From contig CM067067.1 of assembly GCA_033980235.1 (NCBI GenBank), positions 39,909,985-39,973,984 of the forward strand: a stretch of DNA of 64,000 nt, in the 5' to 3' direction. Made by a program: the position numbers and the translations under genes. This stretch comes from Diadema setosum (lineage: Eukaryota > Echinodermata > Echinoidea > Diadematoida > Diadematidae). Below, one piece after another: positions 15,201-64,000 of this stretch (its first letter is position 1; each line of letters opens with the position of its first letter). The notes under the pieces were generated by a model, which was given only the letters and a program-made list of their open reading frames with translations, was not told where the DNA came from and ran no database searches.

Positions 15201-17660
15201 CTTTGGCAAGTACCAGCGAAACTTTAACATGGGCCAGGTAAGTGTAAATACCTTTTCCAACCTCTGCTAACCTGATGAAGATGGACTGTTTTTCTTATAA
15301 CATGCTTATCCCTTTTACCCCAACCCAAGAATAATCAGGACTAGTCTTCAATTGGTTAAAAGGGTATTACCAATCATACCCCATAATTATTGTTTTCTGG
15401 AATAAAAGGTTGATTTCAACTCGTTTCAATTCATTTGTTTGATTTGATGACTGAGTATGCAATGAATGCAATAGCAAGCAACCACAGGACCAAAGGCTGA
15501 AGTTGCGTGGTAAAGATTTCAGTCCATGTGTTGGTTCCAGTACGCACTACAAGAATGACAAGAATTTACGTCCATGTAGGGCATTTGTCAATCAGTTGCA
15601 AGAATATCATCATCATGTTGCTGTAAAGTCATTATCTGAAAACCTGAAGAAGAAGCATGATGTATCAAAAATTTGGTAAATAATTAAAAGTTGTTGGACG
15701 ATAATGATGCATTAAACTCTTCATTTTATATTTTTGATTTAACATTCTATTTATGATCTTTCAGACTACAGATATCCAAGAGCAGAATCAAAACTAATAT
15801 TTATTAGAACAATGCTGTAAAGTCCAAATAAAACAAACTTTGCAGGAAGCAAGAGAGTCCAAAGTGATAGAAGCCAAGGTGTTCCACAACCCTTCCTATG
15901 GTGGCACTGGTGTTGCTGTTCTGACTGGAACCTACCGGATCTATATGGTAAATGATGTACACAACCCGACTAGTAGAAAGATGATGGAAGTACCAGGTAA
16001 GTCTTCTCTAACGAACATAGGTCTTCTGGACTGAAGCAGATCTCTCTCTATGAATTCTGAGTTAGTTTCCTTAGGACAAATAAATCAACTCAGTAATCTG
16101 GCATTTGTTTGTTTGTTTGTTTGTTTGTTTGTTTGTTGTTGTTAGTTGTTGTTGTTGTTGTTTTTTTTTTTGGGGGGGGTAATTAACAAACAGTACATGC
16201 TGCTTAATGTTCGCAGCTGTGTTTCTCTTGATTCTAATTTAGAGGTCTGACAAAGATATACAATATGTATCATGTAGTTCTATCAATAGCTGACACCTGT
16301 GATTCCCATTACCATGTAATTTTAAAGTAGTAGAGCAGATAAGCCCTCAAAATCACGTGAATTGTGCAAAATTTGACTAAAGCATGAAACTTTCACCAGT
16401 GTTAGTACATACCATAAGATTTATTTTAAGATCGGGAGGTAAGTCTAATTTGACCTCTGATGACCTCCAGAGGTCAATGTACTTTAGATATCAGAAAATC
16501 AATGTTTTTAGACATTTGCAAATGATATATGTGGTTATGTTGCACTAAACATGCATTTATACCACAGAGAAATCATTTCCAGATTCAACAGAGCACTGAC
16601 AGGTTTTTACCTTTGACCTCTGATGACCTCCAGAAGTCAATGAACTTTAAATATCAAAATATCGATGTTTTTAGACATTTGTGAATGATATATGTGGTTA
16701 TGATTCACTAAACATGCATCTATACTTCAGGGAAAGCATTTTCTGATTCCACAGAGCATTGACAGGTTTTAACCTTTGACCTCTGATGACCTTTGGAGGT
16801 CAATGACCTCAAAATATTATATTGATCTGTGATGTAATTGGTTAATGGTAACCATTGTTAAGATGTACAAAACATCTTACAATGAAATTGTCTTCATATT
16901 CTAAAGAGCAGACAGGTTTCTACCTTTGACCTCTGATGACCTTGAGAGGTCAATGACCTCAGAATATCAGAATATTGAAGTATGACATCATTGGTGAAAG
17001 GTCAAACATGGTAAGGATGTACAAAACAAGCATATCTGTGTACAATGACATCGTCTTCATATTCCAAGGCACACAGACGAGTTTCTGCCTTTGACCTCTG
17101 ATGATCTCGAGAGGTCAATGACCTCAAAGTATCAGAATAGTTTGGCATCATCAATGGTAAACATGATGATGTTTTAGAGAGCACTCGTAGGCTCTGTTTA
17201 TTAACGAGCCATTACCGTTCACCTATGAAAATCACACAAGGTCAAATACCTTGAATGAAATGTGAGGATGTTAATACTGATATTGCGATAGTTAATAGTT
17301 AATAATTGTTTACAATGTAGGGCTTACAAACCATGCATTTCTGTTACCAAAAAAGTGGCTACTCATTCCGCAGAACTTTTCAGGTAATCATCTAAGTCGG
17401 GTATGTGCACAGAGCAAGGGGTGGCGATCTGTTTTCACGTGGGGGGGGGGGAACTTGGAAAATATGTAAAAGCATAAGTTCATGGTGCAAAGGAATGAAG
17501 CGGAGGGGGAGGGGGAGGATGTGGGTGGGGGATTGGATTTTTGCAGGTTTAGACCTGAAATCAGTGATTCAGTGTAGCTCTTGTTTAATGTGTGCGTCAT
17601 CACTTATACGGAAGTTGATGGGGTGTGGGCGCATCTCACCTACCCTCCTCCCAAAGACGA

Positions 17661-17696
<36 letters not shown>

Positions 17697-19535
17697 ATCT
17701 GATGCATACGTTTTGGGGGAATATTTGGAAAATTATGGATCACCAAGGTGTACCAAGTCTATATGGATGGGAACCCAGGAAGTGCAGCGTTGGCGAGGGT
17801 AGGGTATTCCACTCCCATTCGACAGAGCTCTTGTATTTTGAGAAATGAGATTCAACGACCTGGCACACAGGCACTTTTGAAGGAATACCTCGAAATTTGT
17901 ATCAAAAAAGCCATCTATGGAGGAAGACCAATCGACAGAAGGATGTGGGTGGAGGTATCCCCCTCCCACATTATGGCGCTTTTGCATTCTTTTGTTTGCA
18001 ATTCAATGATCTCGTGCCACTCTTGGTTGAGCTACCATTTTGAAAAAAAAAAGTCCATACCCAAATGTGTAGCCATAATCAATGCATGGAGGAGAGGTTT
18101 ATACAGCAAGAGGAGGGTATGAAAAGGGCTGTCCCCCAATCCTTCCCATGCGAGGGAGCCTTTGCAGTAAGAATAGAAATGTAAAAAAAAAAAATCTAGT
18201 ATACACATTTATGATGGAATATTTGGGAAATTATCAGTAAAAGGAGTGTACCAAATCTAAGGGTAGAAACCGAGGAGGGATTGTTAATTGAAAGATACAC
18301 TACCCCCTCCAACAAGAGGGATTTTCTTTAATATGTCGGAACTGAAATTAAAGGTCTAGTACATACTTTGTGATGATATAGAACAAAAATGGGACAAAAG
18401 CACTGAGCGTATATGGAAGGGGACATAACGAAAGATAGTGTGGGGGAGGGGGTATGCAAAGGAGATTCTGCCTTTTAATCTGGTGCATACTATAGCAAAA
18501 ATGTTCAGTGACAATTCATTTTCTGTCAAAAAAGTAAAGAAAAAAAAATCTCAATCTCAGGAAATACTTGGAAGCAAAGTTTTATGTCCCCACCATTCCC
18601 CCTCCCATATTTTCTCGGGAGGCGGGGCAAATGCCTCTTGCCCTCCAAAATGAACAATCGTGCATATATAGGAAAGCCTTTTCATCTTTGGAATTCAAAT
18701 AAAAATATCTCTTAAAAACATTTTTCATAGAATAAGGGAAATTATCATTCTCCAAAGTATGTTATATCTGTGGAAGGAACCAAGCAGGGGGAAGGAGTCT
18801 ATCAAAAGGAGATATCCCCTCTCACAGAAGGGAGATTTTGCATTTCAGAATTAAATTTTAACAATCCGATGCACACTTAAAGTGAAAAACTTGGGCAGTT
18901 TTCTGTCTAAAAAGCAAAAAAAAAAAAAACAACAACAACAAAACATAGTCCACATCTCAGAATTCAATGGGGTGGGGGTCAACTATCCCTGCCACCACCC
19001 CACCCCTCCTCCAAACTAATTCCCCGGTATGTGCATGTGTTTTATTCCACTTGTTGAAAAGAAGAGAGAGTTTTAAGAAACAATATTGTTCAGTGGTCGC
19101 TATCCCAGTCAAGTAAATTGTTTATCAATAAGATGATTTCCTTCACCTGTATACCTTAAGATGATGTAGGCCTGGTATTTACCTTGCACGTTATTACATC
19201 TATTTTTTTTTTTAGTATTCTCGTTTATTATTTTGATGTGAAAGTTGTTTACTTTGCCACGATTTTATTTATACATAGAAAAAATAATCCAAGACTGAAA
19301 ATGAAACTGATACAATATTTAATGATTGACATGATGCACATATTGTGTATTTCTATAGCAATAAAAGTGGGCAATTCAAAAGGCGTGTACTCATTTCACA
19401 TGAACATTAGCGATGATCCTCTGACCTCTGGAGGATATTGAAAGATATGCATCAAAATGTAAGAATATTGATGTCTGGTCTCATTGGTTTGTAATGGCCT
19501 GCTGCTTATGAAATAATAATTATATTTAAAAAATG

Positions 19536-19571
<36 letters not shown>

Positions 19572-22500
19572 AAAATTGTATGCAGAGTATTCCACACACA
19601 GTTCAGTTTTGACTTCCATCTAGGACAATGAGCGGTTACTTTTTTCTCAACTACACTGTAATATCAAAATCTATTGAAAAAACACGGTGGCGGCTGGGTC
19701 TAACACATTATCATTCCTTTTCGTTGGAGATCCATGCGGGATGGTCAAAACAAACATAAAAATTAGATATCTCAGACCTAATTGTTATAACAAAGCATCA
19801 TATCCTCATATACCCAACCCAACCCTCTATGCCCAGACAATGTAAACCACCCCATGGACTTACTTGGAGCTTTAGAATATCCTTTGTCAACAGAGAGAGA
19901 CATCCAAACCTTTGCAGTGCCGACTAAGATCTGCCATGGAACTGATTGGTATTGGCTCTGCATCATTGACAGCAGATCTCGTTTCCTATTCTCCTTCTTC
20001 TTCTTCTTCTTCTTCTTCTTCTTCTTCTTCTTCATTATACTGTGTAATCTTGTAATATTCTGCCATGGAGCCTTTTCTTAATTGGTTAAAGAAGGTATCC
20101 AAAGAGCTACATGAAGCAAAAAACAACAAACAAATGCAAAAACAAAAAGAGAGACATATGTATCTTTAATAACAGAGCTGAATATTGAGTATCTCTCTCC
20201 TGAAGTGTTTCAAAGAGATACAAGAGACAGTGGCCGAGAGTAGCCGCCACCTTTTTTGGGACTAGGCCTACTTTGTGTTCTTGCAAATGATGCCTGACAT
20301 TTTTGGTCATTTGCCCTTTTTGAAGAATGCAGCAATAGAGCCACAACTTACTGCGGAGTGGATATTGTGGGGTTCTTGATGCAGAACATCATCGCTGAAT
20401 TTGCCTGAGCTGTACTTTCTTACAGGGATTGCCATTGTAGTTTTGTTTTGTTTTGCTTTGTTTTGTTTTTCAAGTGTGGCTGTAACACTGCTTGTTTTGC
20501 ATATAATATGATGGTCATTGCAGCTAAAGAGTGCATATCTTCTCTGGATCATTCCAAACTTCATGATGTTTCACCTGGGTGAATGGATCCCAGATGATGC
20601 ATGCATATTCCAGGACAGTCCTGAGCGGCATGGAGTAGCAAAACACCTGAACTTTATGATACTCGTATCTTCCGTCTGGAGAGAGTCTTTGGTTGAAGTA
20701 TAACCTTTTTAAGCTGCTGTGGCGATTTGATTCCAGCTGAGCCTCCTATTGGAACTCCAAAATATTTTGCACAATCCGCTTTCTCCATGGTTTGCCATGA
20801 AAGCTTATCTATTCCCTGGGTAGGTCTCGGATGGCAATAGCTAGTTGCAATACACAGGATTGCTTCATGTGGAATGCATGTTGGGCCTCACAGTATGTCG
20901 AAGTTTCAAGATGGTCCATGATGTCGCAGCTGTGGACTGTATACTCCAGGACCATGAGTCATTCATCGCAGTCTTAACCCACCAGCTTTACACTGGCCAA
21001 TACAGGCCCACCAGCTGGAAACTATGCAAATATTGCCCATGAGCTTGACACTTAGGCAAACCAGTCCCATAATGAGTCCAACAAATGGGGGAAAAGATCT
21101 ATGAGACTTACACTGAATAGATTAAACACTCTGTATATCAGTCTCGTGGGCCTTGTTTTCCTCGAGTGTCGAGATAATGGCCATATTTGCTAGTCTACAT
21201 AACTAACCCAAACATAACAGTTGTATTTGAGGTCACTGCCATCACTCAAGAAACTTAAGCTTTATTTCTGAAGTAATTGACCTCTCACATTTCAGAGACC
21301 TGTTACTATAAACCAATGCTCTGTGGAATATGCAGACATACTTTGATCAAAACATCAATGCGTGATTTGTACATGATTAAGCATTTACGATTACACCAAT
21401 GAAGCCAAACATCAATACAGGTAAGCCTACACATGTGACCTCATTGACCTCTCATTTTCCTGAGAGGTCAAAGTTGGATATAATGCACAGGCTAATGACC
21501 AATGTTCCATGGAATGACAAGATTCTTCTATTATAGCATAAATGATTGTACATCGGGTATTACAAAGTTGACCATTGACTATACATAGAATATCAATATT
21601 CTGATATTTTTGAGGTCATTGACCTGTCACCTTCCTCAGAGGTCAAAGGTAGAAACACGTGAGTAATTTCTCTTGCTCTGTGGAATAGGAGAACAATTCA
21701 ATTGTAATACAAATGAATATAACATCTAAATCATGTTTGTCATCAACCAATTGCACCAAATATCAATGTTCTGACATTTTGAGGTCATTGGCCTCATCAT
21801 AGGTCATCTGAGGTCATCGGAGGTCAAAGGTAGAAATCTGACTCGAAAGGCTCAGTGGAACATTGAGGCAATTCCTCTTACAAAAATTAGTTTTTAGTAC
21901 ATAATTATCGTGTTTCGGTTATGAGTGACGCATTAAAATATCAATTTTCTGACATTTTGAGGTCATTGACCTCTGAAGGTCATCAGAGGTCAAAGAAACC
22001 TGTCAGGGATCTGTGGAATATAAAGACAATTTCAAAGTGACAAAAATTAAGTTTTAGTATATCATTACTGTGTTTTATCATTAACCAATGATGCAAAATA
22101 TCAATTTTCTGACATTTTGAGGTCATTGACCTCTGGAGGTCATCAGAGGTCAAAGTAGAAACCTGTCAGGGCTCTGTGGAACATAAAGACAATTTCACTG
22201 TGACAAATATTAAGTTTTAGTACATCATTACTGTGTTTATCATTAACCAATGACGCAAAATATCAATTTTCTTAGATTTTGAGGTCATTGACCTCTAGAG
22301 GTCATCAGAGGTCATCAGAGGTCAATTCAGACTTACCTCCCGATCTTAAAATTAATCTTATAGCATGTACTAACAATGGTGAAAGTTTCATGCTTTAGTC
22401 AAATTTTGCACAATTCTTCGGCTTATCTGCTCTACTAAAGGAAGTTTTGGAAGATTTGATAAATTGGTTACTTTTTTTTTCTTGACTCGGAGCAAATTTC

Positions 22501-25500
22501 ATTGAATAGGAAATAGAATTTATAGCTAAGCTCAACAAAGTAGCCTTTGTCTATCCCTCTTTTTTTTTTTGCCCTCAGGGACTCTTCATGCAATTATATG
22601 AGGTCATTCTGCAGGAGACAAGTTTTTTTTTTTTTTAACGATATATTTCCTCCAGTGTCTGCACTTTCTTTCTTTATTTTTTGAGCAGTGTGATAAAACA
22701 TGAAGCAACTTGAGATTTTGGTGTAAGAATCATATTGAGAGTTATCAACCAAACCATGAGGAGCACTGGTCATTTTTGTCGAGCCCACCGGAGGTGTGGG
22801 GAGACTAAGGGATCGCCTGCGGCGTCTGTCCGTCCTTCGTCTGTCCTTCCGTCCGTCGTCCGTCGATAACGCTACAAAAACTTGAATAACTCTCTACTGA
22901 GGACTTCAATTTCAATCAAACTTGGAGGGAAGAGTGGTTATACAAAGTTACACATTTTACCAAACATGAAAGTTACCTCAAGGTCAAAGGTCACAGTCAG
23001 AGGTCAATGAACTTTGGGCCCAATGTTAAGTTTTTATGGTGCATTTCGATTATGGCTCATAACCTTTGATGTATGTGTACGTTTGTGACCAAACTTGGAT
23101 GGTACATGTCCCTTGAGGAGTTGAAGGTCACCACAAGGTCAAAGGTCACAGACAGGGGTCAACGTATTTTAGGTCCCTATGTTAGGTTTTTATGGCGCGT
23201 TCGATTATGGCTCATAACTTTTGATCCCTTTGTCCGTTTTTGACCAAACTTGGATGGTAGATGTCCTGTGGGGAGTTGAAGGTCATAACAAGGTCAAAGG
23301 TCATAGGCGGGCCAATGAACTTCCAGGAGTTAGAAAAACATTAATTTCTTCTACGCGAATGGGCGAGACACAATTTGGCACTTGCCTTGTTGTTATTGGT
23401 AGCAGATAGTAAAGTTTGTTGAACCACCTCAAAGCCTGATTCTGAATGCATGACCAGTTGGGCTATCATTGATATTAGGGAGGTGTAGATTTTTGTGACG
23501 GAAGGTTCAGAGGAAAAAAAACATGTTCTGAGCATGCACAATAATAATAATAATAATGATTATAATACTACTACTACTACTACTAATAATAATAATAATA
23601 CGTTTGTACATTTATTAAGCGCATTTTCCATAAACGTACATGTTCAAATGCGCTTCACCAGTGGATTATTGATATTAATGGAACAAGTGAGTTTTTAGAT
23701 GTTTTTGAAGGTGATGAGAGATTGCTGGTTGTGGAGAGTTTTGGGTAGTTGATTCCACAGTTTGGGAGTGCGCGTCAAATCAATCTATTTATAGCTTGTG
23801 TTGTCTGAGTTTTTCACTACATGTTCTGGGCTATTTTTATGTCCGCTTTATTCACGACGTAGAGAGCCACTTCTTGCACCGATCATATGGGGGCGTCATT
23901 GTATTTTTCATAAGTTGCGTCTCAACGTAATCTAAAGCTACTTTTCAGCACGACGCAGGGAGAGGGGAGAACGTCCAACGCAAGCGTCATTTGAACTCGT
24001 CTCAAACGTCCGCGCCGCAAATCTAAAGCTTCCCATTACTGCATTTGAGTATTGTCTAATCATGAATATCATGGCAATCTGGACTAAATTATTCTTGACA
24101 TGAATGTAAACTTGTAAACACTCAGGATTGGATGCCCCACCCAGTAGCTGGTGTGTGATTGGAGGAGATCGGCAGAATCACATCTTATTGGCCAGGGACA
24201 AACGTCTCTTCAAACTCGACCGTAGTGACATACAACAGCAGGTCTGTTTTTTTATCACTGTTACCTTTACTATAAATCTTTACCTTTGTAAATCTCTTTC
24301 ACAAAATGTAGCAAAATACCCACCTCTCCCTAATCCCTAAAAAAGACAACCTACTCGCCCCCCCCCCCAAAAAAAAAAAAAAAACTGTGGCAATAATTGT
24401 TATTGTTGATGTCATACATGGCAACAGCCAATCAGCTTTTAGGATTTTTGGCTTTTGCTGTGGTAATTGATAATATTGTAAGAGTATCTGCGGTAAATCC
24501 ATAAAGTTACGGACAAAATACTTGTCGTAGACATGTATTGGATTGGATATTCAGATTATGAAATAATCATCGATTTGTGTCTAATGTCTGACAGTACAAG
24601 TCTTGCTTTGTAAGTCACAAGATTTCACAAACATTCTATAAACAGAGGCTGCTACTTACCAACACCAAGTAAACATCGTTTACCAAAAGAGGAGATGTCG
24701 TAATTCACGCCAGTCTTTCTATGGCTTTTCATCTTTTGTCATCAATTATTATTTGATCCTCAGATTCTGGAAACAAAGACAAAAGAAGTGAATGCATTCA
24801 TTGAGATGGCAGTTTCATTTGACAACCGTCTTCTGACACTGTTTAGTGACACGGGACTTCTCTGGATTGGTTCCTCAGATTTACAGGTGAGATGATTTCA
24901 GTCCAGATTAAAATTTCAGTGTCTCTGTAGGTAATTTTTGCATTTGTTGTTTTTTGCTAATAATCATGTTTTAGGATTTCCTGAGGACCTGATTAATTTT
25001 ATAGATTCAAGGAGGCCTAGTTTGGTCATAAGATCTACTGAAATTTGAGAAAAATCAATATGTCTTCCAGGGCGCCACCCTGAAGTGAATAGTTATTGGA
25101 AGCACTGAGGCCTGTAGTTTTAACAGGAAACTTGAAATTGGAGTATTTATTTTCTCTTTTGCATTGAAAATCGAAAGAAAAGAAGGGAGTGAAAAAGAGT
25201 AATGCTTTGCCCTTTATTCTGTACTATCAAAAGTTGGCACTCTGTCGGTATCTTTCCTCCAACCTCTAGCCACAGAGGCAGTGAACAGAAATTGAATATC
25301 ATAGTAGCTGTTACACCACAAGAGTTGCCCATTGCATGCTGTAATGTTCTCACATGGCCATGAAATACTCATATTATAGGGAAGTTGAATTTTTATTACA
25401 CGCATAGCTGCAAAATCATTTCACATGTTGTGTACTATGTGGAAAGTGTCGTAAAAAAACTGATGTCATTTTCCAAATAGTTTAACATGGTGTGTCAAAC

Positions 25501-28500
25501 ATGGGAACATTCTGAAATAGTTGAAAATGGGTACATGAAGGTTTAACCAGATACATGTACTAGAGGATAAATTTAAGATTTAAATGTAATAATGATTAAC
25601 CCGTTGAGGACGGACTGATTTTGCTACAACACACATTTCCCATAGACACCTGCCCAAGTATACTCAGGATTTGTCCTCTAAGGGTTAAGGTGAAGACTGT
25701 TTGACTTTGATGATGATGCTGATAATGATGTATATTCATATTTTCATATTTTTGTGATTAGAAAACATACTGTGAGTTTGACACCAGTAGCCAGATGAGA
25801 CCAAGGCAGTTGGTCTGGTGTGGGATTGGTGCTGTGGTTGGCTATTGGGAGAATCTCCTTCTGGTCATTGGACCAAAAAAAGACTGGATTAAGTATCCTT
25901 TTCCTCAGTGGCTTTCATGTTCAATTGGTTTTATTATACTATTTATTGTATGCTTTCTTCAACTGTCTGGCCTAGTAGTATAACCCTACACTTTGCCAAT
26001 AGAATCTTTCACATTTTGTTGTTCAAATAAAGACAAAATGAATATTGGGAAGTCTGCATTGTTACATGATGTTTAAAGAGCATTACCTTTTCCTGTCGGA
26101 TTTGAAAAACCAAAAATGAAACTCTGTGTGCATTCGTTTCAGTTTGAGGTTGATACATCACTTACAATTATGCTGTGTATGTTTGTGCACAGTTGGTTCA
26201 ATGAGAAATCCAGACTTTTTGAAAGTTCTGCAATTGCATCTTGAATAAGGCACTTTACTTAAAATGTGGAAGGATGTTTTTATTTGGTGCAATTTTTCCC
26301 CAGTTTTTATATCAGTATGTTAATCATTCCAAGCAACAAAGCAGTTTATATTTGTGTTAAATGAAGAAGGGAATTGAGAACAGTTTTGACTGACTAGCCT
26401 TTGAAAATCAGCATGTAGAAATCTTAACCCAGACTGACCAGATACAACATGGACACAGATGCTGTGTTGGTCCCAGAAAGTGACAGTCTTCACATCTTAC
26501 AAACTCACACACATGAACTTCTACAAAGAGTCCCAGGTAGGTAGAGGATGGCAATCTGGGGTCTGTTTCATAAAACTTGTCATCAGTGACAACTGCCACT
26601 GTGACATTTCTATGACCAATTTGCTTTCAGCCAATCAGAATCGAGGATTCAGTAGCTTGTCACATCTATGACGACTTGTCACTGATGACAAGTTTTATGA
26701 AACGGGCCCCAGATGTGATTGACCACTACTCATTAGCTGCAGTCACACTTGCCATAGACTATGAAGTGTAAGATTGTGAAGTCTTTGTGATCTTTGGTCA
26801 TTCATACTGCACTGGCAGCCGAACTTCTTGATCTTTGGATTGAAAAGTTTGGGTCGCTAGTGGTGCGTGTGCGCAAGAAAGAAGAAAGAGTATGCCATCT
26901 GACTGCTGGTGATTGTGATGTAATAATACAATCCTGTTCATCACAATGACCACTCGCTTCAGAGGCACAGCCTGCAAACAGGTGGTGGATGGACTGGTCA
27001 CATGACAAACTTTGTGAAGCTTCAGTCTTTTGTGTTCATACTGGCAAAACATCCAGGAGTTTGGCGGGAAATACAAATATCCCTGGTTTGATTTGGAAGT
27101 TTTGCAAGAAGTTCCATGAGAAGTTTTGGAAGAAATTCCATGAGAAGTTTTGCAAGAAGTTCCATGAGAAGTTTTTGCAAGAAGTTCCATGAGAAGTTTT
27201 GCGGGAAGTTTGTGGTCACACTGGCAATTAAACTTCATGATCTTTTGCTCATGCGTCTGCAGCTATTGATACTACACAAACAGTTAATACACTATATAAA
27301 GCAATTGTTTTAATGTGCTTAAGTTTCTGTCTGAAATGAAAGTGGCACAGATTCATCATATCATTTTAATTAAATTTCATCTAAGACTCAAGTAGACAAT
27401 GTATCAGTGTTAAAGTTACATGTATTTACATAAACACCTTGTTCATGTTGTGATATACAAGACACATTTAAGTTTGTAGCAAGTCATGTGGGTAAAAAAA
27501 AAAATGCCTTGCAAAGTATGTCTTGTGAAGCTTAGAGGCAAAGTTACTTACGTACATGATGAGACGTAATTCCCCAGTCTGTTTAAAACTGTTTATAAAA
27601 GAAATTTTATCTCCAGGTTTTGTTCATTATAAAGTCTGATGTCTGAAGCATCCCAGGAATAGGAAGATTTGGCAATGTATAGTATAAAATAAACATTTTT
27701 TTTTTCTTACTACAGCCAAGGAATAACTCATGATATCTAACATTTGTTGTAATTGTGTATTCCATTGACACAGTGTGTCTGTTTAACCCTATTCTAACTG
27801 GGGGGGGGGGGGGGGGGTCAAATTGACCCCCCCCTCGACGTTTCGCGCCATGATTCCGCAACGCGCAAAGATTTTGCCGCGTCGTTTCATGACTTTTTTC
27901 ATTCGAGTCTCCCGCATAATTTGAGACCAAATTTGCGACGTTCTGGTACACCGCTCTGAAGTTATGCAATGTTTTGCATATGCATGTCAACCCGAAAAAC
28001 GCTCGAATTCATGATTTCGTGTGCAAATCCAATGCAAACTGTGTTTTTTTGTTTAATTGATATAAATTAGATTATTTCAACTTTTAACCATTGAAATAAA
28101 TCAATTCTAATGTAGATAAGCTTGAAAAAGTGCCTCCAACAAATTTTGGCAAAAAAAGCAATAGAAAACAAAAGATCGAAAAAACAATAAAATACATAAG
28201 AAATTAACAAAACAATAAAAAACAAAAGAAAATGATTTTGATTGCGCTATTTTTTTACTAGAAAATTGTTTGATGTGTCCTGAGGAACTCTAACACAAAA
28301 ATTTAATAATCCTTCAGTCTTTTTGATGGAGTTATAGGTGAAATTATGATTTCATGCATTAATTTGCATAATTAATTTATTAAAAAATATGTAATCAAAA
28401 TTTTTCTATTGTATGACCATGTAATCTTGTAGTTGACATCCGGCTCTATGTTCAGGCAAAATTTTGCGGCGATCGCGCAATCGGCGGCCGAGATCTGAAG

Positions 28501-31500
28501 GGGGGGGGGGGTCAAATTGACCCCCCCCAGTAAAAACTTGGTCTCAAATAGCCCAGTTAGAATAGGGTTAATAGTGATAGTCTATTATCAAAATTTGTGG
28601 GTTTTTTGTATTCTCTGCTGCTAAGGGATTGTATATTAATGATTTATTTGGTAGGTGTAGTTGAGGAGATCTTCAAGATTGGGTCAATGGCCCCTGGTGC
28701 TATGCTGTATGAAGCCTCAAGAGAATTCCAGGTAAGAGCCATGCTAACCACATTGGCCCATATTTAAAAGGTACAAAGCACATTTGTGTGTTAAATTATG
28801 TCCATGGACTAATTCATGTGACAAAAGGAATACCTTACCTCTGTGTACAGTGTATGTCTATGCATGTTCGTCATTGGATATCTGTTAGTGTATGTGATTA
28901 TATCATCATGTTTATGCAGTCAAACTTTGTAGAATCCATATCCAGACTAAATTTACATTTTTGTCGGACTGTGTGTGAATTCTGGCCATTATGCCATACT
29001 ATTATGTCTTTCCAGTGCTATACCCTTTGACATAGCTTTGTTGAGCGCTGTAACATGTGGCACAGATTCATGCTATGTACTTTCTTGACAAGTAAAACAG
29101 TCCTCATGGAACAATGTAAGAATCACGGATAGCCCTGCAACTTCTAGCGATTTAACTTTTAATATTGTGGTTGTTCAGTATACGGTATATCATGAAAATG
29201 CAGCTTTGCAAGTTTGGAATCAGAGTTCCTTTTGTGTGTGGACAGACAAACAGACACTGCTTCAGTTTATTTCAAGTCACAATGAAGTGATTCAGATTCA
29301 GATTCAGATCGTTTATTGTCATGCACTACGGCATAAAAATCTTTGCAACAGTCTCCATAAAAATTTTACATGTAAAGGAAAATAAATACGTATACATAAC
29401 TGAAGGACAAGGAACATAACACTAAACAAAGTACAGTAAGTACACGTACATGTATTATAATAATCAAAATATTGCACTTGGTCCCTGCACATGTACATGA
29501 CTTATTACACGCAAAAAAAAAAAAAAAAAAGCATGCATGGCTCGTGACCCTACCCATCCAACATTCAAAAACAATACACGCAAACCCACACTCATCCACC
29601 CACACACACCCACACACACACAAACACACAGACACATCCGCACCTCCCCACGCCTCATACACGCCCACATCACAAATGTACAGCTGAACCAAAGGGCTAC
29701 TGTACTGTAGTAGCTCCGCGGCTCTACGTACCCCTACACAATATAATCCACACCCACAGTGCACCCAAAACACTAACACATATCCACCCACTGCAAAGGC
29801 ATACCACATACACATACCCAAACAGACGACATAGACACACACTTACACACCCTATCAAGTTCCTGTTTCCATGTACCAAAACATGTGCGCACATGTCCGC
29901 ATCAATTGGAAGAAAATGCACAGTACACGTGCATGTGCAGGGATGTTATTCAAACAACACATGTCTTTACATTGATAAATGAAATAAAGAAAGACACCTA
30001 CAGTTTACATAACATGTACGGTATGTTAAAATCCATAACTATTGCTAGAATTGGAATATAAAGTACATTATAAACATACAAATCAGTACTTTTACATCAA
30101 AGAAAAAAAAAATGAACAGATTATTAAACCCCTATATTCCAATATGTAAATATCATCCACTGAAAAACCAAATACATCGTACATGTATGAGTGTGTTTTG
30201 TTTTGTGCCCGTGTGTGTATGTGTATGTGTGTGCATGTGTGTGTGTGTGTATAAAACATGCACGGGGTAGAAATACATATAACACATATACTTTCCTGTA
30301 TACTGATATACAATCAAATATCCTGAGAAATCCAATCCTGTCATGTTACAACACACAAACCAAACTTATACATCACCAGAAAATGCCAAATTATCACACC
30401 CCTGTATCCAACTGTACGATTTAAGAGTCAGACATTGTTTGCATGACAGACATTATCCACCTTCCTCTGCTAAATACGCATTTCACATTCCCAGACGATG
30501 AAATGACTAGTAGAAATACATTCATATTTTCTTCAATTCATCATAAAGTAAAAATGAATTCTTGTGTTTAAAGTGGGATATGTACAAAGTGATGTAATTC
30601 CTAGATATTTTCCTCAGATAACATACATTTGTATGTCACTTGTGCAACAAGAGATATATAATGCACTTGGTAGAAAAAAAATGACAAATTTACATAACTT
30701 TACTCTTAGGATTGTAATGGCAAACAATTTTGAGATGGAACCATGTCACCTTCAATAGAGTTAAATTCATGAGGTGAGGTCAAGTATCCTTGCCTTAATC
30801 ATGAGCAATGTAAGGACTAAAGTCTGTTTGTATTCAATATTTCAACTGCTAGTAGCACATGAGCTAAAAGTGCATATAGTTGATTTGTTTTATATTTTTG
30901 TCAGCATTTATTCTGTCTCATTCTCCGCTGTAAAAATGTTCTTATGTAAAACTTTACTATGTGTGTAAATTTCTATCATACAGAAAGAGAGCCAGAAGGC
31001 AGATGAGTACATCCGTATGATCAAAGACCAGCTGAACCTTGCTGTAGAACAGTGTATTGAAGCAGCAGGCTCAGAGTATGAACCCAGCACACAACGTCTT
31101 CTGCTCAAGGTAACACTACTCTTATTAGAGTTCTTAGCATTTAACGGACACCTTAACCCACTGAGGATGAGCAAATTTTCTTGAATGGCCTTCAACGAGT
31201 TAAATAACTTACTGTACACATACAAGATTGTATCCCACAAGAGAGGACATTTTTGATATGAGAAACTGCCATTAGAAATATATGGGTCCCACAAAATTAC
31301 CAGCAGAAGTAGTAGCTTTCAGTTACACTGTGTACCTTGACGAAAATACTTCACAGATAACCCTGCTTTGTTGATATTGTATGTAGAAAAGAACAATTTA
31401 TCTCAATGATCATAATGCTCACCATACTGTGATATATTAAGAGAAGAAAATCTATTCTGAAAGATGTCAAATATCAACTTAAACTGTAGACCTGTGTTTT

Positions 31501-37500: not shown

Positions 37501-39290
37501 CTAAGCCGAAAACCGAGTTGGCCAGACTCTCTTAATATACGGCACTGCTCCTGTCTTATTGTCCCCGCCGAACGAGTTCGAGCAGGGGACTATGAAACGG
37601 GCTCCGTACGTGTGTGTGTCCGCCAGTCTGTCCGTCCGTCTGTCCGTCCGTGTGTGATCAAAATGTTCAATTTGCTACTTCTCTGTCATTTATGAGCCAA
37701 TTTTGATTCTGTTTGCTTTATATGATAGCACTACATGGGAGCTTTGAAACTTCTACACAGAATTTCAGTTGTGACCTTTGACCTTGACCTTTGACCTATA
37801 TTGTACATTTTGCTTCAAAATGCTACTCCTTCGCCATTTTTAACCCAATTTCGATTCCGTTTGCTTTATGTGATGGCACTAGGTGAGGCTTCAAAACTTC
37901 TACACAGAATTTTGACCTTTGACTTCTTTGACCTTTGACCTTGATTTTTGACCTATATTGTACATTGGCTACAAAATGCTACTCTTTGCAACTGATTGAC
38001 AAATTGCCCTGCATCGACGTACGTGTAAATAAGCATTGAATTGATCAGTGTTTTAGTAGTAGCCATGATAAAAAATCATTGGCGTACATACTCGAGCGGG
38101 ATTCGAACCCACGACCTCCTGATCACCGGACAGGCGTCATCTCCACTAGACCACCGAGCTTTCGCCCGACAGCAAGTGTTGGTTCTAATCCTTATAGCAT
38201 GCAGCGGGTACTGCGTAATTATTCAAATTCATGAAATTCTTCCGTCGAGATGCTTTCATTGCAACTGATTGACAAATTGCCCTGCATCGACGTAAATAAG
38301 CACTGAATTGATCAGTGTAATTACGCAGTACCTGCTGCATGCTATAAGGATTTAATAGCCTGCAGATATTACATGGGAGCAATTGTCACATGAGCAAATG
38401 TCATGGAACCACACACACTATCCCACCAAGCTAACACATATAATGGCCAACTGTGACAACAATTTTTAAAAAAAAGTAAGACATGTAGTTGCCATGTCAA
38501 TTCATACACATTGTTGGACTCTGTGTTGACAGACAGATTAAAGGATTTAGTTTAGACACAAAACATGATGTAAGACTTCCTGCAACAAGGCCCTACTCCC
38601 TTTATTCTATGACAGGGCCACACATAGTTTACTCCATAACAGAACTGATTTCTTCAAGAGTTTGATCATGTAAAGCTCTATCATTTATCCTGTGAAGATT
38701 CTGGATTATTCTTTTTTGTCTTGGTTTAGGAGATGTTATCACTTCATTGTCTATCAGATTACCGTTTCATGTTCAAAGTTTTGTGCCTGTATTGATGCTG
38801 TGGCTACAGAAGTGAAAATGGTTGCTACCAGTATATGCTGTGGTATATTGAATCCTATGCTTTGTTTGATGACACAAATCCATGTCCAGGTTGAACAGAA
38901 GCACATTCCAGATGAAGCAATAGCAGAGAGCATCAAGAACAAGCTTGGAGACACGCCTGGTATTGCCTACTCAGAGATTGCCAAGAAGGCCTCTGAGTGT
39001 GGGAGGACCCAGCTGGCTGTTAAAGTAAGTTATCCAAGGCACATTATCAATAGGTTTGTAGATTTGTTGTGGTGATGATTAAGAGAATGAGTAAAATTGT
39101 TGTTGTTATTATCATTATCATTATTATTGTTACTGCTACTACTGCTGTTACTGCTGCTGCTATCACTACATGTACTACTACTACTGCTACTACTGCTACT
39201 ATTGCTAAAGCTACTGCTGCTACTGGTACTACTACTACTGGTACTACTACTAGTTGTTGGAATTATAATATCACTATTATTATTGTCATG

Positions 39291-54494: not shown

Positions 54495-54840
54495 CAAAGG
54501 GGCATTTGCCCCGCCCCTACGGAAGTGTTTAGGCAGACACATCATGGTTTATCCCCCAAGCAATTCCCGAGATGAGGACAAATCTCGAACTTTCTTAATG
54601 GAAAATTGTCCAAATATCGCCAGAACTATGCACCAGATCGTTGTATTGCAATCATAAACATGCAAAAGCTCCGCTATACAGGATCCCTTTCGATAGACTT
54701 TGTACACTTTTGAGATTGACGTATATTTCCCTAATTTATCAAAGAGTGTGCAGCAGATCTTTCACTTAACAAAAGCACCCTCATATGGAGAGGCGTCGAT
54801 GGGGGGGGGGGGGGGGATGGTTCCCCCGTAAAAGTGGGAC

Positions 54841-56245
54841 AAACAAAAGCGAAAAATTTAGCTACAAACGGCAGTGTTTGGAGTGTAAAATGTCAAAATT
54901 TTAAAGCTCGCTCGCTCCGCTCGCTCGCATTGAATCGCTATGCCATTCTCCTGATGCTGCTGCCTGTGAATGGCAGCAGTTGCGCCCGGTGCGCCCCGGC
55001 CCCTTAATTTCCAATGCGAAGAATATAGCTACAAACTACAAACGGCAGTTTTTGGACTGTAAAATGTCAAAATTTTGAAGCTCACTCGCTTCGCTCGCTC
55101 GCATTTAATCATTATGCCATTCTCCTGATGTTGCAGCTAGTAATTGCCAGCAGTTTTCGCCCGATGCGCCCCCCTTAATTTCCAAAGCGAAAAATATAGC
55201 TACAAACGGCAGTTTGGGGACTGTAAAATGTCAAAATTTTCAAGCTCGCTCCCTTCGCTCGCTCGCATTTAATCATTATGCCATTCTCCTGATGTTGCTG
55301 CTAGTAATTGCCAGTAGTTTTCGCCCGGTGCCCCCCCCCCCCCTTAATTTCCAAAGCGAAAAAATACAGCCACAAAGGACAGTTTTTGGGACTGTAAAAT
55401 ATCAAAATTTTCAAGCTCACTCGCTTCGCTCGCTCGCATTTAATCGTTATGCCATTCTCCTGATGTTACTGCCAGTAATTGCCGGCAGTTGCGCCCGGTG
55501 TGTCCCCCCCCCCCTTGATTTCCAAGGCGAAAAAATACAGCCACAAACGACAGTTTGGGGACTGTAAAATGTCAAAATTTTCAAACTCGCTCGCTTTCAT
55601 TTAATCGTTATGCCATTCTCCTGATGTTGCATGCTGCCAGTAATTGCCAGCAGTTGTGCCCGGTGCGCCCCCCTTTAATTTCCAAAGCGAAAAATATAGC
55701 TACAAACGACAGTTTTGGGACTGTAAAAAGTCAAAATTTTCAAGCTCACTCGCTTCGCCAGCTCGTATTCAATCGTTATGCCATTCCCCTGATGTTGCTG
55801 CCAGTAACTGCCAGTAGTTGCACCCGGTGCACCCCCCTTAATTTCCAAAGCGAAAAATTACAGCCAAAAGCGGCAGTTTTGGGACTGTAAAATGTCAAAA
55901 TTTTCAAGCTCGCTCGCTTCACTCGCTCGCATTTAATCGCTATACCATTCTCCTGATGTTGCTGCCAGTGATTGACAACAGTTGCGCCCGGTGCGGCCCC
56001 CTTGATTTCCAAAGCGAAGAAGTATAGCTACAAATGGCAGTTTTTAGCATGTAAAAGCATTATGTCAAAATTTTCAAGCTCGCTCGCTCCGCTCGCTCGC
56101 ATTTGATCGCTATGCCATTCTCCTGATGCTGCTGCCATGCAGTGATTGACAGCAGTTGCGCACGGTGTGCCCCCCCCCTTAATTTCCAAAGCGAAGAATA
56201 CAAACGGCAGTTTTTGGACTGTAAAATGTCAAAATTTTCAATGTA
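54841..56245 (+). repeat. Tandem array of about 168-bp units (about nine copies)
   Basis: TCAAAATTTT recurs near 54890, 55067, 55231, 55402, 55572, 55731, 55894, 56064 and 56229, that is every 159-177 bp. Each full unit runs AATTTCCAAAGCGAA, AGCTACAAACGGCAGTTTT, GACTGTAAAATGTC, CTCGCTTCGCTCGCTCGCA, TATGCCATTCTCCTGATG, GCCAGTAATTGCCAGCAGTT and GCGCCCGGTGCG with a short C-run. The in-frame repeated peptides on both strands are by-products. Confidence 0.9.
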
Positions 56246-57002
56246 AAAAGATTTCACCGTGGGAGGGAGAAACCCCCCTACCATACCCTCCCCCTCCCTC
56301 GCTTGCTTCGCTCCCTCACGATCTCATAACCGCTCCCCCAAGATCAAATCTTGTCTACGCCGGTGATAGGCCCCACTATTTAGTAGGCCTTCGCAGTGAT
56401 GTCGCACAGGCGGAGCAAGAGCTGAAATACCACGATTTAGTCATTCAATAATATATTGTGAATATTTCATTTTCTATTGGTTTTTTTTAAAGAAAAAACA
56501 AACAAAAATTTCACCAAAAGTGTGCACCAGATCGCTGAATTTCAGGTCTGAAAATGCAAAATCTTCCTCGTGTGGGAGAGGGACACCCCCCCCCCCATAC
56601 ACCCTCCCCCCGTTAACCCGGTCGCTCCACTCTCTCTCACAGATATTTCAAAAACAAAAAATGTCTTCATACTTTTAAGGTCTGATTTTCCGCCGCAAGT
56701 CATCTGACAAGCAAAAAAAAAGCAACAAAAAGAACAAAAAGTCTTCATATTTTTGCTGCCACTTTCCTCCCACTTTATATTTCATGCAAAAGAGTGGGAC
56801 ATCCGATCCCTGTAAAGTGTGCGTGTGGGGGGGGGGGGGGGAGAGAAGCTTCTCTCCCCCCCCCCCCCCCCCAAGGCTGCGCCGGTCCGGTTATGGGCTT
56901 GTAAGCGTGGTGATGGTGACCATCCCCCCCCCCCCCCCACTCCTCAGTACGGATTTACGCCGTTGACACACGCACACACACATACGTTCCATCTGACATG
57001 AC

Positions 57003-62193: not shown

Positions 62194-63180
62194 TTAGGTC
62201 CCGATCGATGTACCGTGAGATAGGATCGCCCGTAATGTGCTCTTTACGCATGATTTGAATCGCGTGTCTGTGGCGTAAAATATGAACATCTTGCACCACC
62301 AGCAGCCTAGATATACGGTCTTCAGCAGCCACAAGAAAATATCAGCAATCCATCCATCACCAAGCTTCGGGACGACCACCATCAGCACCAAGGGTAAGCC
62401 GATGCTAACAAACGATATCATCGTGTACAGGGCGATTGTCTTGGTTCCGCTGAGGTCGAGCCTTCGTTGACCCCTGCTTGTCGTTCCTTCTGTTGAAGGG
62501 CGCCTCATACGTTTCGCGAAGCGGCGTGCCAGGACCAAAAGCGACGTATTTATAACAGCGTTTACAATCCCTGAAGTACCCACGCTGGCGATAACGAAGC
62601 TAATTACCACTTTTTTGTACGAAGACAACAAGTCCTCTCCACCACTTCCGCAGAGAATGCCGGTGCTGACAAAAGGAAGTCGTCCCACAGGGAGAAAGAG
62701 CGAAGACGCAAGAAGGGCCCAAGCCGCTGCCGTCACTACGAACGAGCCAGCTTTTACGCGCGTCAGGTACGCGCGGTAAGTGAGAGCATAAAAGGTAATG
62801 ACATATTTACTCAAACTTAGTCCACTCAGCAGGAACGATGAAAACACGAACGCAGCGACTACCCCTGATAGAAAGCACTGGCAAGTGGTATCAAGTCGAC
62901 CATAAATCGATGTCACCTCCCCTAGCGAAAATAATGCAACGCTCATGATCCCGCCAAAAATGTCGCATATGGCAATCGCTCGAAAGAAGATGGTTTCGAC
63001 AGCATGAAACTCCATCGTGGCACTCCTCTTGAGGGCGACGAGTATTAACAGGTTAAAGACTACGATCGGTATGATCTCAAATAAGAATGACGTTATTAAC
63101 AGATACCTGTCCAAGTGACTGGAGTCATCTGCGGCACCTTCCAGACCAAGATCATTATACGAGTCCGTAGAGTGTGTCAT
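62194..63180 (-). CDS. Intronless orphan rhodopsin-like GPCR
   Basis: A 328-residue single-exon protein with seven hydrophobic segments. TM1 is about 30-52 (VFNLLILVAL with the helix-1 Asn), TM2 about 65-88 (AICDIFGG with the helix-2 Asp), TM3 about 98-125, TM4 about 143-165, TM5 about 190-215, TM6 about 248-272 and TM7 about 280-303. Cysteines fit the TM3-ECL2 disulfide (TTCQCF and GILCGSG). It departs from the family norm: DRY is replaced by SKY in SLSKYVITFY, TM6 lacks CWxP (FVSIGLPLVL), and NPxxY is replaced by CKMFIFY. The N-terminus is short, with no signal peptide. Intronless, divergent receptors of this kind are numerous in echinoderms; ligand unknown. The start is chosen at the first ATG upstream of TM1. 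Confidence 0.85.
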   Translation of the reverse strand: MTHSTDSYNDLGLEGAADDSSHLDRYLLITSFLFEIIPIVVFNLLILVALKRSATMEFHAVETIFFRAIAICDIFGGIMSVALFSLGEVTSIYGRLDTTCQCFLSGVVAAFVFSSFLLSGLSLSKYVITFYALTYRAYLTRVKAGSFVVTAAAWALLASSLFLPVGRLPFVSTGILCGSGGEDLLSSYKKVVISFVIASVGTSGIVNAVINTSLLVLARRFAKRMRRPSTEGTTSRGQRRLDLSGTKTIALYTMISFVSIGLPLVLMVVVPKLGDGWIADIFLWLLKTVYLGCWWCKMFIFYATDTRFKSCVKSTLRAILSHGTSIGT

Positions 63181-63203
63181 GGTTTCCTTACATTCTGCAC
63201 CAT
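63177..63203 (-). promoter_or_regulatory. uORF overlapping the GPCR start codon
   Basis: An upstream ATG at 63203 opens an eight-codon frame (MVQNVRKP) whose TGA overlaps the receptor's ATG as ATGA. If the leader is unspliced and includes it, translation of the receptor would depend on reinitiation or leaky scanning. Confidence 0.4.
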
Positions 63204-64000
63204 GCGCGAGCCTCCTAGATACTGGCCGAATATAGAATGAAATATTTTGATTTTATTCAACTAGGGCAAAGAAGAGCGTTCGACATATCACAGATGCCCC
63301 CTGCATGCAACTACTTGATTATCACCGTTGATTTTCGTTTGTTTGTTTGTTTGTTTTGTGATTATAGAAGTGCCTTTAAGTAGTGGCTTCTTTAACGCTA
63401 CAGCCTTATAATGCACAAGCAACGGTACATTTCTAGTCACTGACAAACAAATTATATACCTGTACATGTACATACACCTTAGTACTAAGTATGCGTGAAA
63501 GAAATACATGTATTATCAGTACTGTTCAAAGACATACACTTGTAAGTGGTAGGGCCTATATGCTCGAGGCAATGCCCACTATGAAAAGATTTGCGAGCAC
63601 ATGCCAGAATCCTCGATCTGTCTCGTAAACGCTATATCTATATCTATATCTATAGATTATATATATGTTTATATACAGTCAAACCTGTCTATAGCGGCCA
63701 CCCAAGGGAAACGAAAAAAGTGGCCGTTATAGACAGGTGGCCGCTATAGACAGGTAATCCAACTTAATGTGCATTGCCTATACATGTACATAATCGTTTA
63801 ATACATCGATAAGTATTTAATGTACATAAGTACTATGCGTAAGTATACACACGTGTATTTCATGCATTGAACAATGCCGGTGTTTATGAAATTGTTGCAC
63901 GATTGCATGTGTACAGTCGTGAAGAAAGCTTTACACTAGTGCATTATTATGACTGAATAAGTGATGAATGCAGCGGTGGCGATCACTGAACGTTGCCCAT
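63204..64000. other. 5' flank of the right-hand GPCR with a dispersed repeat
   Basis: A TATA-like CTATATTC lies about 50 bp upstream of the receptor ATG (minus strand). A (CTATAT)n run is at 63630-63672. The segment 63675-63760 has ACCTGTCTATAGCGGCCAC followed by two inverted copies (GTGGCCGTTATAGACAGGT and GGCCGCTATAGACAGGT) and is related to 48930-48962. Nothing else was recognised. Confidence 0.45.

What the first reader, a model, noticed from the sequence alone, without database searches (positions are those of the whole stretch)
16321..22440. 6.1-kb foldback whose arms are arrays of nuclear-receptor-type half-sites
Each tandem unit carries TGACCT-n4-TGACCT (DR4) and AGGTCA-n1-TGACCT (IR1), giving dozens of half-sites within one VPS16 intron. 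The spacing is repeated unit after unit and mirrored in the opposite arm. It could act as a response-element array or a receptor sink, or the motif may be what the transposase recognises.
Basis: partly seen in the sequence, partly recalled or inferred. Interest (0 to 1): 0.75.

Follow-up and report, generated by a model that had tools for sequence, protein, structure and literature searches.

The report
Young foldback transposon with receptor-like arrays
A 6.1-kb stretch inside a gene intron is a recent copy of a jumping DNA element found at hundreds of places in this animal's genome; both of its arms carry arrays of a six-letter motif that looks like a hormone-receptor site but is most likely the handle that the element's transposase grips.

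Summary
The feature is a foldback-type DNA transposon at 16328-22437, flanked by a 3-bp duplication (AAG), in an intron of a VPS16-like gene. Its arms hold 11 clear and 2 decayed units with 44 exact TGACCT/AGGTCA half-sites in all (500 shuffles: mean 3.5, maximum 9): 10 DR4, 7 IR1, 6 ER4 pairs. DR4 and IR1 are both intact in 5 of 11 units, not in each.

The genome (886 Mb) has 553 matching tips (6 in the control). An exact 3-bp duplication flanks 22 of 23 copies scored. The nearest copy fetched is 99.9% identical over ungapped columns, so the family is young.

Half-sites are kept better than the rest: across a diverged subfamily 93.6% identity against 80.5% for linkers and 79.3% for spacers. 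Among young copies half-site variants are about half of expectation (33 vs 63), but the replication set alone is weaker (24 vs 33.6, p about 0.05).

Best reading: a non-autonomous cut-and-paste element whose arrays are transposase-binding sites, as shown in vitro for Galileo. No transposase was found; the superfamily is unknown. The 3-bp duplication argues against P- and Mutator-type foldbacks. Receptor binding is untested and not excluded.

The parts
16328..22437 (.). whole foldback DNA transposon, 6110 bp, terminal sequence TAGTAGAGCAGATAAGCC at both ends
16325..16327 (.). target-site duplication AAG, left
   Evidence: 22 of 23 copies scored have an exact 3-bp duplication
22438..22440 (.). 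target-site duplication AAG, right
16328..16448 (+). left terminal domain without half-sites
16449..17233 (+). left array, five clear units (16449, 16612, 16775, 16925, 17090), half-site core plus spacer
17221..17379 (+). decayed unit
   Evidence: E=1.2e-7
19422..19540 (+). decayed unit in the middle segment, same orientation as the left array
   Evidence: E=3e-8
17380..21307 (.). middle segment without a recognised transposase; shared by the 20 copies of the subfamily, some with internal deletions
21308..22324 (-). right array, six units read on the minus strand
22325..22437 (-). right terminal domain without half-sites
15846..15996 (+). exon upstream of the intron that holds the element, VPS16-like
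   Evidence: Vps16_N 20.7 bits, E=2e-4, under the 23.4-bit cut-off; later exons over it

Best explanation
It is a copy of a young, high-copy, non-autonomous cut-and-paste DNA transposon of the foldback type. Shown: dispersal, common tips, a 3-bp target duplication, fixed array position, better conservation of half-sites. Inferred: a transposase supplied in trans cuts at TAGTAGAGC...GCTCTACTA, and the roughly 40 TGACCT sites in the two arms are secondary binding sites for it, in direct, everted and inverted pairs, which concentrate transposase at the ends, add up to specificity from a short motif and help to pair the two ends, as proposed for Galileo. The likeness to DR4 and IR1 receptor elements would then be mostly coincidence: the core is a 10-bp module (TGACCTCTGA) present directly and inverted, which by itself gives DR4 and ER4.
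For: 553 tips against 6 in the reversed control; all 40 scored left tips (the window's own included) 99-100% identical; exact 3-bp duplication in 22 of 23 elements scored; exact core 16-mer 1545 times against 0 in the reversed control; first half-site at fixed distance from both tips in 20 of 20 copies. Half-site identity 0.936 against 0.805 for linkers and 0.793 for spacers in 31 units of a diverged subfamily, and 0.888 against 0.758 and 0.623 among the window's 11 units. Among young copies 33 half-site variants against 63 expected from same-trinucleotide positions. Galileo transposase binds sites in its TIR tandem repeats in vitro (PMC3688188).
Against: No transposase, and so no binding, was found in any copy read. 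The strong depletion of the first 20 copies (12 variants vs 42) shrank in the replication set (24 vs 33.6, p about 0.05). Decayed half-site positions did not vary significantly more than intact ones (5 of 60 vs 14 of 234, p 0.56). The whole core block ranks 4th, not 1st, of 130 blocks in the diverged subfamily. Some spacer words, such as TATCAA, are as quiet as the half-site. A second repeat family in the genome also has AGGTCA arrays, which this transposase would not explain.
Confidence: 0.6

Rival explanations
1. The arrays bind host nuclear receptors, which the element uses for expression, chromatin opening or recruitment, and copies act as response elements or receptor sinks.
For: The hexamer is the consensus half-site, and DR4 and IR1 are canonical spacings (general knowledge). 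A second repeat family in the genome carries DR4 and DR1 arrays. Alu repeats hold half of the consensus DR4s of the human genome, and some Alu DR2s recruit RAR (PMC1785376, abstract).
Against: No occupancy data. The quiet bases lie on the 3' side of AGGTCA (rates 0.075 and 0.115), while the base on its 5' side, where monomer receptors read an extension (recalled), has the highest rate of the profile apart from one far position (0.39). ER4 and 10-bp modules follow from duplication alone. A host function would not be expected at hundreds of scattered copies.
Confidence: 0.15
2. The arrays have no present function: a 10-bp module spread by slippage and unequal exchange, and conservation reflects homogenisation.
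For: The core is built from repeats of one module; units R0 and R3 hold an extra 10-bp copy; Galileo TIR repeats also expand and contract (PMC3573991, passages); the replication of the diversity test is borderline.
Against: Homogenisation of whole units does not explain quieter half-sites beside drifting linkers in a diverged subfamily or the step at the base after TGACCT (0.146 to 0.39).
Confidence: 0.2
3. What matters is the hairpin: the transcribed intron folds into a long double strand that feeds RNA editing or small RNAs.
For: The arms pair with -771 kcal/mol against a mean of -246 for eight shuffled left arms.
Against: The arms are 71% complementary and about 4.5 kb apart, and pairing does not single out half-sites.
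Confidence: 0.03

Closest known systems
Galileo (Drosophila, P superfamily; PMC3688188, PMC3573991)
   Same: long TIRs with internal tandem repeats; transposase-binding sites inside the repeats
   Different: 7-bp duplication, THAP transposase and P-type sequence; here 3 bp and no transposase found
Tetris and Mutator-type foldbacks (PMC4079207, passages)
   Same: terminal domain, then tandem ~220-bp units, then a middle segment without coding capacity
   Different: 8-10-bp duplications
CACTA elements (PMC8978399, passages)
   Same: 3-bp duplication; hundreds of bases of short motifs in direct and inverted orientation next to the tips
   Different: termini are not CACTA; motif is 6-8 bp inside ~160-bp units; no CACTA transposase linked
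TU elements of the purple sea urchin (recalled; only the 1983 citation was seen)
   Same: foldback, modular middle segments
   Different: recalled 15-bp outer repeats and 8-bp duplications
Alu DR2/DR4 motifs (PMC1785376, abstract)
   Same: a mobile repeat spreads consensus receptor motifs
   Different: a SINE with few motifs per copy; here about 40 half-sites per copy in a DNA transposon

Membership tests
Cut-and-paste (TIR) DNA transposon | terminal inverted repeats and target-site duplication of constant length | tested here: met
   22 of 23 elements with an exact 3-bp duplication (L007 not). Outside that count: L005/L006 TTA and TTA; L045 TTT and AAA, not matching
Cut-and-paste (TIR) DNA transposon | DDE/D transposase encoded by an autonomous relative | tested here: inconclusive
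   none among the frames scanned or listed in L001-L006, L044, L045, L048; most of the ~553 tips were not read
Foldback-type element | long TIRs with internal tandem repeats and a variable middle | tested here: met
P/Galileo | 7- to 8-bp duplication | tested here: not met
   3 bp; 7 bp for Galileo from PMC3573991; 8 bp for P recalled
Mutator-type foldback | 8- to 10-bp duplication | tested here: not met
   3 bp; length as given for Tetris
CACTA | 3-bp duplication | tested here: met
CACTA | CACTA termini | tested here: not met
   termini TAGTAGAGC
CACTA | Transposase_21 in a related element | tested here: inconclusive
   2 matches over the cut-off in the genome, no family tip or array in their 3.4-kb loci
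Chapaev3 | CAC...GTG termini and TWA duplication | tested here: not met
   termini differ; TWA in 4 of 22 duplications; definition from PMC4079192 passages
PIF/Harbinger | DDE_Tnp_4 transposase in a related element | not tested
   search for PF13359 did not complete
Zator | 3-bp duplication and Zator transposase | tested here: inconclusive
   duplication fits (Zator length from PMC10045372); transposase not searched
Sea-urchin TU elements | 15-bp outer repeats and 8-bp duplication (recalled) | tested here: not met
   units 150-181 bp, duplication 3 bp; the definition is from memory
Nuclear-receptor response element | AGGTCA half-sites at canonical spacing | tested here: met
   10 DR4, 7 IR1
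Nuclear-receptor response element | receptor occupancy and transcriptional response | not testable with these tools
   no chromatin, binding or expression data

The most novel reading that the evidence does not exclude
Two unrelated repeat families in one genome, a foldback DNA transposon with 3-bp duplications and a second family of TGACCT-rich tandem units (next to a tRNA-derived head in at least one copy), have each built arrays of perfect AGGTCA half-sites and keep them by selection, because a host nuclear receptor is the shared host factor that switches them on or recruits them. They seed a large share of the genome's perfect DR4 elements.
Probability: 0.1. Interest if true: 0.85.

Novelty: new variant of a known kind. 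Interest (0 to 1): 0.5.

Why it matters
What the long repeated arms of foldback elements do is still largely untested (PMC3688188 says so for Foldback and Phantom). Here is a young family with hundreds of tips, fixed array position and a measurable hexamer footprint, so the question can be put to binding and excision assays. Its core 16-mer alone accounts for 1545 of the 3621 perfect DR4s of this genome, a pool of potential response elements, some of them in introns such as that of VPS16.

Tried and rejected
A 7-bp target duplication (TAAAGTA/TAAAGGA; chance about 0.05) was my first reading; other copies showed that the element ends 2 bp further out and that the duplication is 3 bp.

Depletion of variants looked very strong at first (12 against 42 expected). 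I fetched more arms to replicate it: 14 against 20.5 on the left (20 copies) and 10 against 13.1 on the right (15 copies). The pooled effect stays but is smaller. L012 (left arm, 207 private differences) and L015 (right arm, 41) were dropped as rearranged, by a cut of 30 private differences chosen after the per-copy counts were seen; with L012 kept, the new left arms gave 40 against 56.6; with L015 kept, all right arms gave 14 against 36.7. Whether decayed half-sites evolve freely was not resolved. The singleton-to-shared ratio does not differ between half-sites and the rest (p 0.71), so selection at transposition cannot be told from later selection.

The search for an autonomous copy led nowhere. 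Frames of L001, L002, L003, L005, L006, L044, L045 and L048 (20 frames, not every frame) gave no transposase; there was a LINE-type endonuclease piece in L045 (E=1.3e-5, under its cut-off) and a few weak chance-level matches. The three other long tip pairs in the list (C2 15.9 kb, C3 13.6 kb, and half of C5 18.9 kb) were not read or read only in part. Pattern scans of viral and prokaryotic contigs found nothing. Of nine literature searches, five aimed at this point; their listings (1 to 20 papers each) showed no paper on a foldback family with 3-bp duplications and AGGTCA arrays, which is no proof of absence.

My note calls the second AGGTCA-rich family a SINE. That rests on L028 only: the other 15 copies align to L028 from position 159 or later of its 855, so a tRNA head was not seen in them.
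Full report
What is there. The window lies on contig C9 of an 886-Mb genome that is held without a name. An exon at 15846-15996 matches Vps16_N (20.7 bits, E=2e-4, under the cut-off of 23.4); later stretches are over the cut-off (25762-25980, 30.2 bits; 30969-31181, 51.4 bits). So a VPS16-like gene runs on the plus strand, and the element lies in the intron after 15996. The next exon, near 24110, was recognised by eye only (no Pfam match).

The element runs from 16328 to 22437 (6110 bp). Both ends read TAGTAGAGCAGATAAGCC inward, with AAG outside on both sides. Each arm has a terminal domain of 121 (left) or 113 bp (right) without half-sites, then an array. The left array has five clear and two decayed units, the right six. 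A unit is 150-181 bp: a core like TTTGACCTCTGATGACCTnnAGAGGTCAATGACCTC, then a spacer. The core is a 10-bp module, TGACCTCTGA, present directly and inverted, followed by another TGACCT; this gives DR4, ER4 and IR1. Adjacent pairs among the 44 half-sites give 10 DR4, 7 IR1 and 6 ER4; 500 dinucleotide shuffles gave a mean of 3.5 half-sites, at most 9, and none of these pairs.

It is a mobile family. The DR4 pattern occurs 3621 times in the genome against 197 for the reversed pattern; the exact 16-mer TGACCTCTGATGACCT 1545 times against 0. The left tip gave 623 first-look places, of which 40 were scored, the window's own among them; all 40 are 99-100% identical over 123 bases. A tip pattern with up to one mismatch occurs 553 times against 6. 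The first 100 of these tips form 37 pairs within 25 kb, 25 of them 5.5-6.5 kb apart, and 26 tips stay single. Searches fetched 26 regions (25 copies, two regions being the ends of one). In the 23 elements with both tips, the window's included, 22 have an exact 3-bp duplication; the exception is L007, and the tip of L013, which is degenerate, was set by hand. L009 and L012 showed no right tip in range. Outside that count, L005 and L006 read TTA on both sides, and L045, fetched later, does not match (TTT, AAA).

It is young. Twenty elements, the window's included, share one middle segment, some with internal deletions. Their median pairwise identity over ungapped columns is 97.9%; the window copy and L008 are 99.9% identical by that count, 99.6% in BLAST with gaps. 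L001, L003, L004 and the long copy L005+L027+L006 form a second subfamily: arms 77-84% like the window's and another, shared middle. The family is modular, as described for other foldbacks.

Are the half-sites kept? First, among the window's 11 units half-site columns average 0.888 identity, linkers 0.758, spacers 0.623, and in cross-arm pairs the 33-base core is the best of 130 sliding blocks. Second, in 31 unit matches of the second subfamily (one without a core), identity to the window consensus is 0.936 for half-sites, 0.805 for linkers, 0.793 for spacers; DR4 is intact in 17, IR1 in 16, ER4 in 15; the core block ranks only 4th of 130. Third, in 20 young copies half-site positions hold 12 variants where same-trinucleotide positions predict about 42. 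Fourth, the same test on further copies gave 14 against 20.5 on 20 new left arms and 10 against 13.1 on 15 new right arms. The replication alone is 24 against 33.6 (p about 0.05), the pool of both 33 against 63. By position, the variant rate is 0.07-0.20 from two bases before TGACCT to its last base, 0.39 at the next base, then 0.20 and 0.27. Decayed half-site positions were not significantly freer, and some spacer words are equally quiet. I conclude that the hexamer is under constraint, with an effect that the first sample overstated. Copies were chosen by their left tips, so tip diversity is not informative.

How it most likely works. Shown: dispersal, tips, 3-bp duplication, 123 and 113 bp from tip to first half-site in 20 of 20 copies of one subfamily, and better conservation of half-sites. 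Inferred: a transposase supplied in trans, its binding to the arrays, and help in pairing the ends. The model is Galileo, whose THAP domain protects an 18-bp site near the tip and binds two more sites in the tandem repeats (PMC3688188: abstract, the larger part of the results, discussion and legends read). CACTA elements have a similar design, with short motifs in both orientations next to the tips (PMC8978399, passages).

Which superfamily. A 3-bp duplication does not fit Galileo (7 bp; PMC3573991, passages) or Tetris, placed with Mutator (8-10 bp; PMC4079207, passages). CACTA and Chapaev3 fit by length, but the termini differ, and only 4 of 22 duplications are TWA. Zator has 3 bp (PMC10045372, passages) and was not searched. 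Two CACTA transposase matches in the genome have no family tip or array in their 3.4-kb loci, which does not exclude them as partners. The Harbinger search did not complete. No autonomous copy was found among those read (20 frames were scanned with Pfam). The superfamily is open.

The receptor reading is not excluded. The motif is the receptor consensus and the spacings are canonical. A second repeat family carries TGACCTCAAATGACCTTTGACCT in three tandem units; its copy L028 has a tRNA-like head (42.2 bits), which the other 15 copies fetched do not show in the stretch held. In these 16 copies half-sites are less diverse than the rest (0.031 and 0.035 against 0.102), but the copies were found by their DR4s and two of the units are quiet throughout, so half-site selection is not shown. 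In humans Alu repeats carry half of the consensus DR4s (PMC1785376, abstract). Against it stands the place of the constrained bases, on the 3' side of AGGTCA.

Verdict. A real, well-defined transposon family of a known structural type, with an unusual duplication length for a foldback and an unusual array motif.

Noticed in passing
window 22760-23320 and 37560-38160; L028-L043: Other repeats with AGGTCA arrays: DR1 pairs (AGGTCAAAGGTCA) in ~155- and ~150-bp tandem units, beside a tRNA-like sequence at 38088-38160 (minus). The copy at 22760 resembles, by eye, the family of L028, whose units carry DR4 plus DR1.
   Followed up: partly
L045 (G000:C2:16925950-16931100): A copy with two right-type tips whose host flanks are inverted copies of each other (12 of 12 bases shown; inverted match of 804 columns at 91%): an inverted duplication that includes flanking DNA.
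   Followed up: partly
window 20524-20887 (minus): A piece that looks by eye like the end of a LINE reverse transcriptase, in the element's middle segment; no Pfam match.
   Followed up: partly
window 17660-18890: Degenerate purine- and T-rich repeats in the middle segment, with short matches to 54630-54672 and 56509-56598 in the window.
   Followed up: no
window 54846-56241: Tandem array of 8.4 copies of a 164-bp unit, unrelated to the finding as far as seen.
   Followed up: no
window 62197-63252 (minus): Single-exon frame of 352 aa, rhodopsin-type GPCR (7tm_1, E=4.1e-6, under the cut-off).
   Followed up: no
unit spacers, window 16449-17233 and 21308-22324: The spacer word TATCAA varies as little among copies as the half-sites (rate 0.028); a second motif may lie in each unit.
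   Followed up: no
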